Of a DNA stretch of 43,185 bases, positions 30,859 to 36,152 are shown in pieces. The translations under genes were made by a program, and so were the position numbers. The notes beneath the pieces are model-generated. The model was given only the letters and a program-made list of their open reading frames with translations. It was not told the origin of the DNA and did no database searches. The DNA is from Thermoleophilaceae bacterium (GTDB lineage Bacteria; Actinomycetota; Thermoleophilia; Solirubrobacterales; Thermoleophilaceae), in assembly GCA_025937135.1 (NCBI GenBank), contig JAICRZ010000006.1, positions 1 through 43,185 on the forward strand, in the 5' to 3' direction. How positions within the stretch are numbered: position 1 is the stretch's first letter; each line of letters begins with the position of its first letter.

Positions 30859-32178
30859 CTAGCGGGGTTCGACTTCGAAGCGGATCGCGAAGAAGTCGAG
30901 CATCGTCGGCTGGTCGCCGCCCGCCGGCAGCGACGGCTCGACCAGCTTGAACGACCACTCGGAGAGCATCCGCGCCAGGACGGCCCTGCCGAGCAGCAGC
31001 ACCAAGGGCCCGCCGGGGCAGTCCTGGGTCCCGTTCGAGAGGTGGTTGAAGCGGTACTCGGTCGGGTTGTCGCCCATCCAGCGCTCGGGCACCACGCGGT
31101 CCGCGTCGTCGATGCTCTCGGGCCGGCGGTGGTTGAAGACGTTCAGCATCATCACCTGCGTGCCCTCGGCCAGCCGCGCGCCGCCGAGCTCCAGGTCACG
31201 CGCGGTCTCACGGGCGAGCAGCGGCGTGGTCGGCCACAGGCGCATCGCCTCGTGGAGCACGCCCTCGAGCAGCTCGCCGCCTTCCGGCAGCTCCTCGCGC
31301 ACGCGCGCGCACAGGGAGGGATCGGCGGCGATCACAGCCAGCGCCCGGTACGCGTTGGCGCCGAGCGTGTCGCGCATCGCGAACATCCAGTGCGGCACCT
31401 GGTGGGCCACGCGCGTGCGGTCCGACTGCGGCGCCTCGCGGACGAGGGAGAGGAGCGAGCCCTCCTGAGGGTCGGCGAGGTAGCGCTCGATCTTGCCGTA
31501 CAGCTCGTAGTAGTCGTCGGTCGGCTCACCGACGCCGACGAGCCGCTGCCCCTGGTTCATCAGCTTCGCGAGCAGGCCGGTCAGCTCCTGGTCGCCGCGG
31601 GCATGGTCGCCGAACACCACGCGCAGCGTGATGTGGTCCCACAGCCCCTCGAACGCGTCCCACTCCAAGACCGGCCCGATCCGCAGCCGCGCGACCTCGT
31701 CCTCGACCACGGAGAGGAATCGGTCCGCCAGCGGATGCACGCGCTCCGAGTAGGCGAGCACCGACTCGTTGAACGCGCGCCGGTCGCGCCAGTCCGCGCC
31801 GCGGGACACCGTGAGCGCGTCGGGCTGGAAGTGGCACATGCCCTTGGCCTTGGCGCCGCCGTCGGAGGCGTAGTCGGTGGCCGAGTTGTCCAGGACCTCG
31901 CGGATCGCGCCAGCGCCCCACAGGACGGCCAGCCGGCCGCCGAGCAGCCGCGCGCCATCGCCGCCGTGCTTGTCCCTGATCTCAGATAGTGCCCGGATGG
32001 CCCGCGTGTCCATATCGAGCGCGGTCAACCTCTTCATCGCCCCACGCCGCGGCTTGAAGAGCCCGCGCGCGAGCGAGGGCAGCAACCCCGTTGCCACGAA
32101 CTTCAGCGACTCGCCGAGCGACGCATCGTGCAGCCGCCCGACCGCCGCCTCGCTGCGTGCTTCCGTGGCGGTGCTCAC
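30859..32178 (-). CDS. Cytochrome P450 coupled to the dioxygenase gene
   Basis: 439 residues from GTG 32178. ExxR is Glu310-Arg313 (HEAMRLWP). The haem signature is unusual: FNHLSNGTQDCPGG, with the ligand Cys387, lacks the standard FxxGxxxC glycine spacing. The I-helix reads FAMRDTLGA in place of AGxxTT, keeping Asp-Thr. Atypical P450s of this kind may rearrange hydroperoxides rather than hydroxylate. The GTG overlaps the TGA of the dioxygenase gene (GTGA), so the two are translationally coupled. In fungi, dioxygenase and P450 domains are fused in Ppo proteins that make oxylipins; that this pair does the same is an inference. Confidence 0.88.
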   Translation of the reverse strand: MSTATEARSEAAVGRLHDASLGESLKFVATGLLPSLARGLFKPRRGAMKRLTALDMDTRAIRALSEIRDKHGGDGARLLGGRLAVLWGAGAIREVLDNSATDYASDGGAKAKGMCHFQPDALTVSRGADWRDRRAFNESVLAYSERVHPLADRFLSVVEDEVARLRIGPVLEWDAFEGLWDHITLRVVFGDHARGDQELTGLLAKLMNQGQRLVGVGEPTDDYYELYGKIERYLADPQEGSLLSLVREAPQSDRTRVAHQVPHWMFAMRDTLGANAYRALAVIAADPSLCARVREELPEGGELLEGVLHEAMRLWPTTPLLARETARDLELGGARLAEGTQVMMLNVFNHRRPESIDDADRVVPERWMGDNPTEYRFNHLSNGTQDCPGGPLVLLLGRAVLARMLSEWSFKLVEPSLPAGGDQPTMLDFFAIRFEVEPR

Positions 32179-34046
32179 GCGTTGATGGCCTCGAGCGCCT
32201 TCTTCATGCCCTCGAAGCGCTTGCCCATCGGCCCCTTGCCGTCATGCGCCGCATCCACGCGGTGCCACGGCAGGAACGCGTTGGGCATGCCCTCGAGCGA
32301 CGGCTCGAGCTCGGGGTAGTGGCGGATGATCACGTCCTTCATCTTCGTGTGGTTCACCCAGTCGATGCCGGCCTGCGTGTAGACCTCGGGGGTGAAGTCG
32401 GTCGTGAAGAAGCGATCCGACTTCAGCCGCCGCGACGCCATCAGGATGAACACGCGGAACGCCGTGTCCGAGAAGCCGAAGCCGGGCGGCAGCGGCTCCG
32501 CGTACATGCCCACCTGGAGGTCGACCGAGTCGATGTCGTTGTCGTACACGCGCCGAATCTGCTCGGCCCACTGCTTGTTGTCGGTGAGCTCGTCGAACGA
32601 CCGCACCCGCGGCATCCGCATCTCCTCGCGGAAGTCGTTGTAGCGCGGGACGCCGCGCTCGCGGTCGCGGAGCACGTCGAGCGTGGCCAGGTCCATGAGC
32701 TCGCCGTCGATGCGGCGGTGGTGCTGTAGCGCGCGCGGATAGTTGTGCAGCGTGATCTGCCCCGGGTTGAGCACGCCGAGCGTGTAGATCAGGTCCGGGA
32801 TCTCGTAGTTCTCCATGAACCCGCGCGTGTTCGACCCCTGGAGGTCGTCGAAGAAGCGCTCCTCGACGCGCTCGCCGGAGTCGTGCCGGAAGAACTCCCA
32901 GTCGTCGCGGATCAGCGGGTGCATCCGGTAGACCGAGACGAACTCCTCGGTCAGCTGGAAGCCCGCCTCCCCGTGCTCCTGCGGCGAGCCCATGATCCCG
33001 CTGAGAATCTCGGAGTCGCCGAGCCGGCCGAAGCGGTCCTTGATGTGCTGGCCGAGTCCGCCGGACCAGTTCACGTTCATCGCGAACCAGAGCGCCGGCG
33101 TGTTGACGATGCCGGGCGTCCACTCGACCGTGTGGATCTTCGCCATCAGGGCCGAATTGATCAGCCAGGCGGTGTCGAACAGCCGCTGGTCGTCCCAGCG
33201 CGGGTTCTCCCGCTTGAGCCTGTCGCAGATCGCGTTGTGCTCCTTGGTGAACAGCGTGTGCAGGCAGGAGAGGCCGAACCACCAGTTCTCGTTGAAGCCG
33301 GCCATGTCGATGCCCGCCTCGTCCGGGTCCTCGAGCAGGCGGCCATCGGCACCGATCTTCAGCTTGCCGTCCTCGAACGTGCGCAGCTGCTTCTGCTGTT
33401 CGACGCTCGTGCCGTAGAGCTGCGACCCGTCCCACCAGTGCGTCTCGGTGTTGCCGTAGTCGACCGCGCGGCCGTTGCCGTTCCCGTTGCCGCCCGGGAT
33501 CGCGACCGAGCGCCGCACGTGCATCGGGTGCTCGGGCCAGTCGTCGGAGTCCTCGATCGGGACGTCCATGACCTCCTCGGGCTTGCCGCGACCGTGGAAG
33601 AACCAGTTGTGGTTCTCGAACTGGATCCACGCGGCGGCGAGCGCGTTGAGCGTGGTGGCCGGCTTGAAGGTGTCGCGCGTCATCAGCTCGAGCGAGACCT
33701 TGCGCGCGCTCGGCGTGTGCAGGCGCGGCGGCTTCTCGGGCTTGATCCGCTTCGGGTCGATGTTGTGCGTGAACTCGCGCCCGACCGAGCCCATGTCCGG
33801 GTCCTCGAGGTCGTTCCAGCGGCCATCCGGGCGGCGCGCGCGCAGCGCCTCGGGTGGCGGGTCCTCGGTGCGCGGCTTCTGCTCGCGATTCGGGCTGTCG
33901 AAGAGGTTCTTGTCGCGCAGGTCGAGCCGCAGCGACAGCAGGTTCAGCGCCTTGAGGCTCACGGTCGGCATCTCGTACCACTGGCGCTTCTTGTTGATCC
34001 GGGCGAACGCCGTCTCTAGCGCCCTGGCGACTGGTGACCTGCTCAC
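32175..34046 (-). CDS. Alpha-dioxygenase/cyclooxygenase-like fatty-acid oxygenase
   Basis: 623 residues, animal-haem-peroxidase superfamily, close to plant alpha-dioxygenase length (about 640). The distal histidine is His146 (FENHNWFFHG). The motif EEFVSVYRMHPLI holds Tyr373 and His376, the same Tyr-x-x-His spacing as cyclooxygenase (Tyr385, His388), where the Tyr radical attacks fatty acids. Other blocks: THWWDGSQLYG and LFTKEHNAICDRL. These features mark a dioxygenase, not a simple peroxidase. No signal peptide is seen, so it acts in the cytoplasm or at the membrane. It is followed with GTGA overlap by the P450 gene. The first start at 34046 is GTG or ATG with a weak leader. Confidence 0.9.
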   Translation of the reverse strand: MSRSPVARALETAFARINKKRQWYEMPTVSLKALNLLSLRLDLRDKNLFDSPNREQKPRTEDPPPEALRARRPDGRWNDLEDPDMGSVGREFTHNIDPKRIKPEKPPRLHTPSARKVSLELMTRDTFKPATTLNALAAAWIQFENHNWFFHGRGKPEEVMDVPIEDSDDWPEHPMHVRRSVAIPGGNGNGNGRAVDYGNTETHWWDGSQLYGTSVEQQKQLRTFEDGKLKIGADGRLLEDPDEAGIDMAGFNENWWFGLSCLHTLFTKEHNAICDRLKRENPRWDDQRLFDTAWLINSALMAKIHTVEWTPGIVNTPALWFAMNVNWSGGLGQHIKDRFGRLGDSEILSGIMGSPQEHGEAGFQLTEEFVSVYRMHPLIRDDWEFFRHDSGERVEERFFDDLQGSNTRGFMENYEIPDLIYTLGVLNPGQITLHNYPRALQHHRRIDGELMDLATLDVLRDRERGVPRYNDFREEMRMPRVRSFDELTDNKQWAEQIRRVYDNDIDSVDLQVGMYAEPLPPGFGFSDTAFRVFILMASRRLKSDRFFTTDFTPEVYTQAGIDWVNHTKMKDVIIRHYPELEPSLEGMPNAFLPWHRVDAAHDGKGPMGKRFEGMKKALEAINA

Positions 34047-34107
34047 GTTCCCTGCCTCCCCCGTTGCCTTGCTCCCTTGAGGGTCCCGTACCCCCGAACG
34101 CGGCAGA

Positions 34108-35052
34108 CTATTCCGCCAGGCGGGGCTTCAGCTCCTCCTCCCAGAAGCGGAAGAAGCGCTCCTGGTCTTCGCCGACCTGCACGAAGCAGAGGTGGTCGTA
34201 GCCGGCCTCCGTCCACTGCTCGATCGCCTGGAGATACGGCTCGGGGTCGGGCCCGTGCGGCACCGCGTCGGCCATGTCCTCCGGCCGCACCGGCTCGGTG
34301 GCGGCCTCGAAGTTGATCGGGTTCGGCAGCTCGGCCATCACCTTCCAGCCCTGGGCGGAGAAGCGGAACCGCTCGTGCGCGACCCGCAGCCCCTCCTCCC
34401 GGCTGTCATTCACGCTGAACGCGAGCTGGCCGATCCTCGGCTTGCCCTCGAACCGCTGCGTGAGCTCGGCGTCGGGCTGGATCCCGACCATCCCGTCGCC
34501 CTGCTCGAGCGCGAGCTCGATCGACCTCTCGCCGCTCACCGCCACATGAAGGGGCGGCTGCTCGTCGGGCAGCGTGTAGAGCCGCGCGTCCTCGACGTCG
34601 TAGTGCTCGCCGTGGTGGGTCACGTAGCCGCCGGCCCAGAGCTCGCGGATCACCTCGATCGCCTCGGCGAGCATCTCGTGGCGCGTCTGCGCCGGCGGCC
34701 AGCCCTGGCCGACCACGTGCTCGTTCAGGTTCTCCCCCGCGCCCAGGCCGAGCTCGAATCGCCCGCCGCTCATGGCCGCCATCGTGGCCGCCTTCTGCGC
34801 GACGATCGCGGGGTGGTAGCGGATCGTCGGGCAGGTGACGAGCGTCATCATCCGCAGCCGCTCGGTGGTCGCCGCCACACCGCCGAGCACCGACCACGCG
34901 TACGGCGAATGCCCGTGCGAGTAGAGCCACGGGTGGAAGTGGTCGGAGATCGTGACGAAGTCGAAGCCGGCCGCCTCCGCGCGCTGGGCCTGCTGGAGGA
35001 GATCGCGCGGATGGTGAAGCTCGCACATGAGGGAGAAGCCGAATGTCGTCAT
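34108..35052 (-). CDS. LLM-class F420-dependent oxidoreductase
   Basis: 314 residues from ATG 35052 (the open frame extends further but overlaps the divergent small gene). TIM-barrel luciferase-like fold: GFSLMCELHHPRDLLQQAQR, FDFVTISDHFHPW, TCPTIRYHPAIVAQKAATMA, and GRFELGLGAGENLNEHVVG. It resembles the subgroup that ends with FVQVGEDQERFFRFWEEELKP, often labelled TIGR03557. F420 is the likely cofactor, in keeping with the actinobacterial setting. Substrate unknown. Confidence 0.9.
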   Translation of the reverse strand: MTTFGFSLMCELHHPRDLLQQAQRAEAAGFDFVTISDHFHPWLYSHGHSPYAWSVLGGVAATTERLRMMTLVTCPTIRYHPAIVAQKAATMAAMSGGRFELGLGAGENLNEHVVGQGWPPAQTRHEMLAEAIEVIRELWAGGYVTHHGEHYDVEDARLYTLPDEQPPLHVAVSGERSIELALEQGDGMVGIQPDAELTQRFEGKPRIGQLAFSVNDSREEGLRVAHERFRFSAQGWKVMAELPNPINFEAATEPVRPEDMADAVPHGPDPEPYLQAIEQWTEAGYDHLCFVQVGEDQERFFRFWEEELKPRLAE

Positions 35053-35082
35053 GCGCCGCCCATACCCGCGATACTCCCCGCC

Positions 35083-35268
35083 ATGTCCGAAAAGCACCCG
35101 AAAACAAAGCGGGACAAATGGGCGGACCGCGAGGCCGACAAGGATCGCGACCCGTCCGACGAGGAGCACCCGCCGCCGCCCTCGGGGAACCTGGGTCCCG
35201 GCGGCACCGCGCTCGATCACCTCAAGGACGAGGCGATGGAGTCGGACCCGCCCGAAGACCGCGGCTAG
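35083..35268 (+). CDS. Small highly charged protein
   Basis: 61 residues from ATG 35083. It is very polar: a Lys/Arg/Asp-rich N-terminus, a Pro stretch (HPPPPSG) and the end NLGPGGTALDHLKDEAM. No family recognised. It is probably disordered. It starts 30 bases from the divergent LLM oxidoreductase gene, and its stop overlaps the end of the LigD polymerase gene by 4 bases. Existence is supported by its fit between two genes and an acidic composition unlike a chance frame, but not by homology. Confidence 0.5.
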   Translation: MSEKHPKTKRDKWADREADKDRDPSDEEHPPPPSGNLGPGGTALDHLKDEAMESDPPEDRG

Positions 35269-36152
35269 ACCGGCAGCTTCCGCGCGTGGCGGGTCATGTC
35301 CTGCCACGGGTCGCCGTCCGACTCGAGCCTGGCGGGCGCTGAGCGCAGCGTCCAGCTCTGCGACCGGAGCTTCCGGTCCGACAGCTCGTCCCAGTGGATC
35401 GGCATCGCGACGGGTGCGCCCTCCTTCGGCCGCACGGCGTAGGGCGCCACCGCGTGCTGGGCGTAGGCGTTGCGGCGCACGTCCACGTAGATGCGGCCGC
35501 CGCGGTTCTCCTTCAGGAACTCAAGCGTGAGCTTGTCCGGGCTGGCCTCGGCCAGCTCGATGCCCACCGCCTTCGCCCACTGGAACACCTCGGGAAAGCG
35601 CGGGCCGCGGCGGATCGGCACGACCACGTGCAGCCCCTGCGAGCCGGTGACCATCGCGTAGGTGGCCAGGCCGCGGTCGCGCAGCAGCTCGCCGAGGTCG
35701 CGGGCAGCGGCGCGGCAGTCGGCGAACGTGCCGCCCTCGTGCGGGTCGAGGTCGAAGATCACGCGGTCGGGCTGCTCCGGCCTGTCGGCCCTCGAGAGCC
35801 AGACGTGCGGCGTCACGCAGTTCTGGCCCGCGAGGTAGACGAGCGTCTCGGCGTTGTTCGCCAGCGCATGCGTGACCGTGCCGCCGCGCTTTCTCACCGT
35901 CGCGCGCGCGACCCAGTCGGGGAAGTGCTTGGGCGCGCTCTTGATCAGGTAGCCGTCGGCCTCGATCCCGCCAGGGAACGAGTGCATCGTCACCGGGCGC
36001 TCGCGCACGAGCGGGACCATCCGCGGCGCCACCCGCGCGTAGTGCTCCGCCAGCTCGAGCTTGGTGATGCCGGCCTTCGGGAACATCAGCTTCTCGGCGC
36101 TGCTGATGACGACCCGCCGCCGCCCCGCGCGCACCTCCGCCGGCTCGCTCAC
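35265..36152 (-). CDS. LigD-type polymerase/primase domain protein (NHEJ)
   Basis: 295 residues from GTG 36152. It is a stand-alone archaeo-eukaryotic-primase-like LigD POL domain: MHSFPGGIEADGYLIKSAPK, the catalytic FDLDPHEG (Asp-x-Asp), SQGLHVVVPI and the C-terminal LRSAPARLESDGDPW. It fills gaps, preferring ribonucleotides, during non-homologous end joining. It is coupled by GTGA to the phosphoesterase-domain gene upstream. No ligase domain and no Ku gene are seen in this window, so those must be elsewhere. Confidence 0.92.
   Translation of the reverse strand: MSEPAEVRAGRRRVVISSAEKLMFPKAGITKLELAEHYARVAPRMVPLVRERPVTMHSFPGGIEADGYLIKSAPKHFPDWVARATVRKRGGTVTHALANNAETLVYLAGQNCVTPHVWLSRADRPEQPDRVIFDLDPHEGGTFADCRAAARDLGELLRDRGLATYAMVTGSQGLHVVVPIRRGPRFPEVFQWAKAVGIELAEASPDKLTLEFLKENRGGRIYVDVRRNAYAQHAVAPYAVRPKEGAPVAMPIHWDELSDRKLRSQSWTLRSAPARLESDGDPWQDMTRHARKLPV

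What the first reader, a model, noticed from the sequence alone, without database searches (positions are those of the whole stretch)
30859..34046. Two-gene split version of a fungal Ppo-type oxylipin synthase
A 623-residue haem oxygenase keeps Tyr373 and His376 in the same spacing as cyclooxygenase and plant alpha-dioxygenase, and the distal His146. Its stop overlaps the start of a P450 gene as GTGA. In fungi dioxygenase and P450 domains are fused (Ppo, linoleate diol synthases) and make signalling oxylipins. Here the same two activities appear as a coupled gene pair in an actinobacterium. The P450 has an atypical haem motif (SNGTQDCPGG) that would suit hydroperoxide rearrangement. A bacterial lipid-signal system of this form is, to my knowledge, little described.
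Basis: partly seen in the sequence, partly recalled or inferred. Interest (0 to 1): 0.82.

Follow-up and report, generated by a model that had tools for sequence, protein, structure and literature searches.

The report
Bacterial fatty-acid alpha-dioxygenase paired with P450
A soil actinobacterium carries a plant-like fatty-acid alpha-dioxygenase whose gene overlaps that of a cytochrome P450, and the same pairing recurs in mycobacteria, Nocardioides, Streptomyces and others; this points to an apparently undescribed two-step fatty-acid oxidation route in bacteria, not to a split copy of the fungal Ppo enzyme.

Summary
The two genes, their overlap (GTGA) and the cited residues are real. The oxygenase is not Ppo-like. 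It is an alpha-dioxygenase (alpha-DOX): 39% identical to the rice enzyme (374 bits, against about 65 bits for cyclooxygenase), with the catalytic Tyr, both haem His and the carboxylate-binding His/Thr/Arg set of alpha-DOX. Bacterial alpha-DOXs are known. What appears not to be described is the partner. In 38 actinobacterial loci of the retrieved set (31 with the P450 directly downstream) the alpha-DOX carries a P450 of one distinct family. These DOXs fall in one supported clade, and the two proteins co-vary (Mantel r 0.78). Cyanobacterial, acidobacterial and other actinobacterial alpha-DOXs nearly all lack it. The nearest solved P450s are fatty-acid binders (CYP184A1 with oleate, P450BM3), not CYP74 or CYP152. 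Most likely the DOX makes 2-hydroperoxy fatty acids (or the Cn-1 aldehyde) and the P450 oxidises the same lipid pool. Whether it uses the hydroperoxide itself or O2 and electrons is open: the window P450 keeps the acid-alcohol pair, but it is lost in 9 of 36 DOX-paired relatives, and no ferredoxin gene lies nearby. Signalling is untested. Verdict: a new variant of a known kind.

The parts
32175..34046 (-). alpha-dioxygenase gene (623 aa)
   Evidence: Pfam An_peroxidase 1.5e-103; best solved relatives rice and Arabidopsis alpha-DOX, 374 and 351 bits; key residues conserved
30859..32178 (-). cytochrome P450 gene (439 aa) of an actinobacterial family associated with alpha-DOX
   Evidence: Pfam p450 7.2e-17; AF2 model pLDDT 92 with P450 fold; adjacent to alpha-DOX in 31 loci, near it in 7 more
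32175..32178 (-). GTGA stop/start overlap, consistent with translational coupling
   Evidence: sequence
34055..34059 (-). GGAGG, likely ribosome-binding site, 8 nt before the DOX start codon
   Evidence: sequence; inference
32928..32930 (-). Tyr373 codon, counterpart of the catalytic radical Tyr379 of rice alpha-DOX; His376 codon at 32919-32921
   Evidence: alignment map
33609..33611 (-). His146 codon, counterpart of distal His157
   Evidence: alignment map
33117..33134 (-). H305-T310 (HTVEWT), counterpart of carboxylate-binding H311/T316; R540 (= R559) at 32427-32429
   Evidence: alignment map; roles from PMC8720084
31366..31380 (-). P450 I-helix AMRDT with acid-alcohol pair D270/T271
   Evidence: family alignment
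31012..31047 (-). P450 haem Cys loop NHLSNGTQDCPG (Cys387; Gln in the usual Arg/His place)
   Evidence: family alignment

Best explanation
The pair is a two-enzyme fatty-acid oxidation unit. Step 1 (family and active-site residues shown, activity inferred): the alpha-dioxygenase uses a Tyr373 radical to abstract the C2 hydrogen of a free fatty acid and adds O2, giving a 2-hydroperoxy fatty acid that loses CO2 to a Cn-1 aldehyde unless intercepted. Step 2 (inferred): the P450, whose gene overlaps and is probably translationally coupled, oxidises the same lipid pool, either by intercepting the 2-hydroperoxide (using it as oxidant, giving 2-hydroxy or dihydroxy acids or speeding chain shortening) or by hydroxylating substrate or product. 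I put about 0.93 on the alpha-DOX assignment, about 0.7 on the P450 acting on substrate or product of the DOX, and about even odds between the hydroperoxide-driven and O2/ferredoxin-driven modes. The likeliest role is lipid catabolism or modification (alpha-oxidation); a signal role is unproven.
For: Rice alpha-DOX 374 bits and 39% identity against about 65 bits or less for COX. All six named catalytic and carboxylate residues and most channel residues are conserved (roles in PMC8720084). The P450 sits directly downstream in 31 loci and within a few kb in 7 more, over Thermoleophilaceae, Solirubrobacterales, Mycobacterium, Nocardioides, Antrihabitans, Aeromicrobium, Williamsia, Rhizohabitans and Streptomyces. 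The link survives rearrangement: opposite strand in L069, upstream in Streptomyces. Paired DOXs fall in one 99%-supported clade (38 of its 43 rows). DOX and P450 identities co-vary (Mantel r 0.78, 0 of 1000 permutations). The P450 fold is nearest oleate-bound CYP184A1 and P450BM3. In mycobacteria the pair is often followed by acyl-CoA oxidase and SDR genes. No ferredoxin gene was seen near the pair, and the acid-alcohol pair is lost in 9 of 36 paired P450s.
Against: No activity is shown for either protein. In an evenly drawn phylum sample only 2 of 11 alpha-DOX genomes had this P450 family and 6 of 8 genomes with the P450 family had no DOX, so neither needs the other in general. Co-variation partly reflects shared species history. 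The window P450 keeps D270/T271 as conventional O2-using P450s do. Ferredoxins are often encoded elsewhere, so their absence nearby says little.
Confidence: 0.65

Rival explanations
1. Split Ppo/linoleate diol synthase: the oxygenase is a linoleate 8/10-DOX and the P450 a hydroperoxide isomerase homologous to the fungal fusion partner.
For: Same two superfamilies in coupled form; same Tyr-x-x-His spacing; a few mycobacterial partners have A-N-Q in the I-helix, like the fungal SRS4 (PMC13049297).
Against: DOX carries alpha-DOX carboxylate residues and motifs and is 39% identical to plant alpha-DOX; the Ppo/COX central Tyr, YxW/F and terminal motifs listed in PMC13049297 are absent; genes are separate; the window P450 has DT and QDC, not NQ and HxC; nearest P450 structures are CYP184A1 and CYP102.
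Confidence: 0.03
2. The P450 is a conventional O2/ferredoxin-dependent fatty-acid hydroxylase that oxidises the chain (subterminal or omega) of the alpha-DOX substrate or product.
For: Nearest folds are fatty-acid hydroxylase-type P450s; D270/T271 pair present in the window and in 27 of 36 paired family members.
Against: Acid-alcohol pair lost in several paired lineages; no redox partner gene close by in any paired locus checked.
Confidence: 0.35
3. The P450 is a self-sufficient hydroperoxide-using enzyme (isomerase, lyase or peroxygenase) acting directly on the 2-hydroperoxide made by the DOX.
For: Tight coupling to a hydroperoxide-forming enzyme; repeated loss of the acid-alcohol pair in paired P450s, with Asn replacing Thr in three mycobacterial ones; an axial Asn is discussed for fungal LDS, PGIS and plant AOS (PMC13049297).
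Against: The window P450 itself keeps DT; P450-family members without DOX also lack the pair, so the loss is not specific to DOX pairing.
Confidence: 0.35
4. The oxygenase is a plain bacterial haem peroxidase and the adjacency is incidental.
For: Pfam calls only 'animal haem peroxidase'.
Against: alpha-DOX residues and 374-bit match; recurrent adjacency over many genera.
Confidence: 0.02

Closest known systems
Plant alpha-dioxygenase (rice OsaDOX 4KVJ, Arabidopsis alpha-DOX1 4HHR)
   Same: 39% identity to rice, same catalytic and carboxylate-binding residues
   Different: bacterial, gene overlaps a P450 gene
Cyanobacterial alpha-DOX (CalDOX, LepDOX, Crocosphaera alpha-DOX; PMC8720084, PMC9468042)
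   Same: same family; close cyanobacterial relatives retrieved at about 47-54% identity
   Different: no P450 of this family beside cyanobacterial alpha-DOX genes, apart from one remote 28% P450 upstream in Moorena L098
Fungal DOX-CYP fusions (Ppo, linoleate diol/allene oxide/epoxy alcohol synthases; PMC13049297)
   Different: other DOX subfamily, C2 rather than C8/C9/C10 attack expected, separate genes, different P450 motifs
Nostoc punctiforme 10S-DOX with catalase-related hydroperoxide lyase (described in PMC13049297)
   Same: bacterial DOX with a hydroperoxide-processing haem enzyme in a separate gene
   Different: COX-like 10S-DOX, and a catalase-related partner instead of P450
CYP184A1 (7WZM) and P450BM3/CYP102A1
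   Same: best fold matches to the P450 model, fatty-acid-binding
   Different: about 20% identity only; different Cys-loop residue; no reductase domain as in BM3

Membership tests
alpha-dioxygenase (alpha-DOX) | catalytic Tyr and proximal His (rice Y379, H382) | tested here: met
   Y373, H376
alpha-dioxygenase (alpha-DOX) | distal haem His (H157) | tested here: met
   H146
alpha-dioxygenase (alpha-DOX) | carboxylate and alpha-carbon positioning residues H311, T316, R559 | tested here: met
   H305, T310, R540 (roles from PMC8720084)
alpha-dioxygenase (alpha-DOX) | closer to alpha-DOX than to COX or peroxidases over full length | tested here: met
   374 vs about 65 bits (COX), residues 16-593 aligned
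alpha-dioxygenase (alpha-DOX) | forms 2-hydroperoxy fatty acid or Cn-1 aldehyde | not testable with these tools
   needs an assay
Ppo / fungal DOX-CYP (linoleate diol synthase) | DOX and P450 in one polypeptide | tested here: not met
   two ORFs with overlapping stop and start
Ppo / fungal DOX-CYP (linoleate diol synthase) | DOX central Tyr motif, YxW/F at the catalytic Tyr, GxGxxxP...DAVxLV terminal motif | tested here: not met
   window has HTVEWT, YRMH, FILMASRRL
Ppo / fungal DOX-CYP (linoleate diol synthase) | P450 Cys pocket HxC and LDS/EAS SRS4 Asn | tested here: not met
   window QDC and AMRDT; motifs from PMC13049297
Ppo / fungal DOX-CYP (linoleate diol synthase) | clustering with Ppo in a tree | not tested
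   no fungal sequences in the collections held
CYP74 / CYP152 (hydroperoxide- or H2O2-using P450s) | I-helix without the acid-alcohol pair | tested here: not met
   D270/T271 present in the window, though lost in 9 of 36 paired members
CYP74 / CYP152 (hydroperoxide- or H2O2-using P450s) | closest sequence and fold relatives | tested here: not met
   best matches CYP184A1, CYP102, CYP97, CYP3A; no CYP74/CYP152 among the rows shown
Cytochrome P450 superfamily | P450 fold, ExxR, Cys ligand | tested here: met
   E310-R313, C387, Pfam p450, model pLDDT 92

The most novel reading that the evidence does not exclude
The P450 is a self-sufficient 2-hydroperoxy-fatty-acid isomerase, lyase or peroxygenase, so that actinobacteria, mycobacteria included, evolved a DOX-P450 oxylipin pathway convergently with fungal Ppo, starting from an alpha-DOX instead of a linoleate DOX.
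Probability: 0.3. Interest if true: 0.75.

Novelty: new variant of a known kind. Interest (0 to 1): 0.55.

Why it matters
As far as the papers read here go, bacterial alpha-DOXs have been studied as isolated biocatalysts, with no physiological context worked out outside plants. A dedicated, co-varying P450 partner over several actinobacterial families gives that context and a directly testable pathway: what happens to the 2-hydroperoxide. If the P450 uses the hydroperoxide, it is an independent bacterial parallel to the COX-prostacyclin synthase and Ppo couples, and it would place alpha-oxidation with a P450 in many environmental mycobacteria.

Tried and rejected
Ppo/COX assignment of the oxygenase: rejected on scores and active-site residues. 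Reading the Gln in the Cys loop as a hydroperoxide-isomerase mark: rejected, since fungal isomerases keep His there and the Gln is a family trait of unknown effect. A ferredoxin partner next door: pattern search gave only what look like out-of-frame chance matches. Expecting non-DOX members of the P450 family to sit beside another hydroperoxide-forming enzyme: neighbours were IclR, ABC, Usp, Dyp peroxidase/imelysin and others, no common theme. The small neighbour c2 as a known fold: weak model and only a weak match to an uncharacterised structure. The upstream luciferase-like gene as a pathway part: not seen beyond the near-identical copy. Papers describing an actinobacterial alpha-DOX-P450 pair: none found with the term sets used, but the library lacks most subscription journals.

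Full report
What is there. On the minus strand the window holds a 623-codon haem oxygenase gene (32175-34046) followed by a 439-codon P450 gene (30859-32178); the stop and start overlap as GTGA. A GGAGG lies 8 nt before the DOX start. Gene calls are supported by Pfam (An_peroxidase 1.5e-103; p450 7.2e-17), by homologues in other genomes and by dN/dS of about 0.38 and 0.57 against the two nearest relatives.

What the oxygenase is. Against all solved structures the best matches are rice and Arabidopsis alpha-dioxygenases (374 and 351 bits over residues 16-594); COX-1 gives about 65 bits over a short stretch. Mapping the rice residues gives H157=H146, H311=H305, T316=T310, Y379=Y373, H382=H376, R559=R540, with L53, R57, W315, F549, F552, I553 and A556 also identical; overall identity is 39%. 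The roles of these residues are as stated in PMC8720084. The motifs that PMC13049297 lists for Ppo-type and COX enzymes (central Tyr, YxW/F, terminal motif) are absent. The enzyme is therefore an alpha-DOX by every feature tested; activity itself was not testable. That alpha-DOX occur in bacteria, Actinobacteria included, is published (PMC8720084).

What the P450 is. It has ExxR, a Cys ligand (Cys387) and a confident P450 model (pLDDT 92). The best fold matches are CYP184A1 with oleic acid and then P450BM3, at about 20% identity; the profile search agrees. No CYP74 or CYP152 appears among the rows shown. In the Cys loop the usual Arg/His is Gln in 29 of 34 DOX-paired members.

The pair in other genomes. 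In 101 relatives a strong alpha-DOX match occurs in 10 genomes and this P450 is adjacent in 6. A scan of 84,980 species genomes gave at least 585 alpha-DOX relatives, of which the best 80 were kept. With duplicates removed and further loci added, 38 actinobacterial loci hold the P450: 31 directly downstream on the same strand, 7 within a few kb. Genera include Mycobacterium, Nocardioides, Antrihabitans, Aeromicrobium, Williamsia, Rhizohabitans and Streptomyces. Loci without this P450 showed no other P450 gene near the DOX by motif, apart from one Streptomyces locus cut short upstream. In the DOX tree 38 of 39 paired rows lie in one clade of 43 with 99% SH-aLRT support (quick tree, one support measure; the 39th is a remote 28% P450 in Moorena). 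DOX and P450 identities correlate (Mantel r 0.78, 0 of 1000), which shows joint inheritance but not interaction. The counterweight: in an even sample of 296 genomes of the phylum, DOX occurs in 11, the P450 family in 8 and both in 2; the P450s without DOX form a separate group, at 30-34% identity to the window protein where measured. So the pairing is a property of one clade, not of all alpha-DOX. The 80 loci were picked for closeness to the query, so the 38 are not a measure of prevalence.

How it may work. Established knowledge: alpha-DOX makes 2-hydroperoxy fatty acids, which lose CO2 to Cn-1 aldehydes. A P450 coupled to this enzyme most simply acts on the same lipids. Two modes remain. The window P450 keeps the acid-alcohol pair D270/T271 of O2-using P450s, and its fold neighbours are fatty-acid hydroxylase types. 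But the pair is lost in 9 of 36 DOX-paired members in several lineages: MRGT and MRNT in the two nearest relatives, KAN in three mycobacterial ones, none in Streptomyces and Rhizohabitans; and no ferredoxin gene was found close by. An enzyme that takes its oxygen from the 2-hydroperoxide would not need the pair. The KANQ form resembles the Asn-Gln of fungal diol synthases (PMC13049297), but the non-DOX P450s of the family lack the pair too, so this is suggestive only. I give the two modes equal weight.

Context. In mycobacteria and relatives the order is often c2 (unknown 215-aa protein), DOX, P450, acyl-CoA oxidase, an unknown 373-aa protein, SDR, which looks like fatty-acid catabolism or modification. 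Nothing found speaks for signalling. In the window itself none of these extra genes was seen beside the pair; an aldo/keto reductase gene lies convergent downstream and a luciferase-like oxidoreductase gene upstream, neither shown to be linked.

Verdict. Observation confirmed, label corrected from Ppo-type to alpha-DOX plus P450. The dioxygenase is a new member of a known family; the conserved pair appears undescribed in the open literature searched, and is a new variant of the known theme of a peroxidase-superfamily dioxygenase with a haem partner enzyme.

Noticed in passing
L062:1123-1767, L067:1498-2250, L052:9023-9778 and about 15 further loci: A ~215-aa protein family without Pfam match (conserved WMPW-GKRFD...GDNR) sits beside the alpha-DOX in many actinobacteria, once with no P450 (L065), with a distant copy in a cyanobacterium (L089); weak fold match to uncharacterised 4MVE.
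   Followed up: partly
L062, L067, L074, L061: Conserved mycobacterial run DOX-P450-acyl-CoA oxidase-unknown 373-aa protein-SDR (the SDR not seen in L062); the 373-aa protein has no meaningful Pfam match.
   Followed up: partly
L058, L062, L072 (P450 I-helix): The acid-alcohol DT is replaced by AN (KANQAA/KANEAA), resembling the Asn-Gln of fungal diol synthase SRS4.
   Followed up: partly
L050 / G022:C309: A 7.4-kb contig 99.5% identical to the window pair is binned in a genome placed in a different genus: mis-binning or recent transfer.
   Followed up: no
window 34108-35307 (-): Luciferase-like (LLM class, possibly F420-dependent) oxidoreductase gene ends about 60 nt upstream of the DOX on the same strand; no counterpart noticed in other relatives.
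   Followed up: partly
L130-L135: A related P450 subfamily without alpha-DOX (I-helix AF-DPAGIA, loop SAGPVVCPG), in one case near a Dyp peroxidase/imelysin pair (L134).
   Followed up: partly
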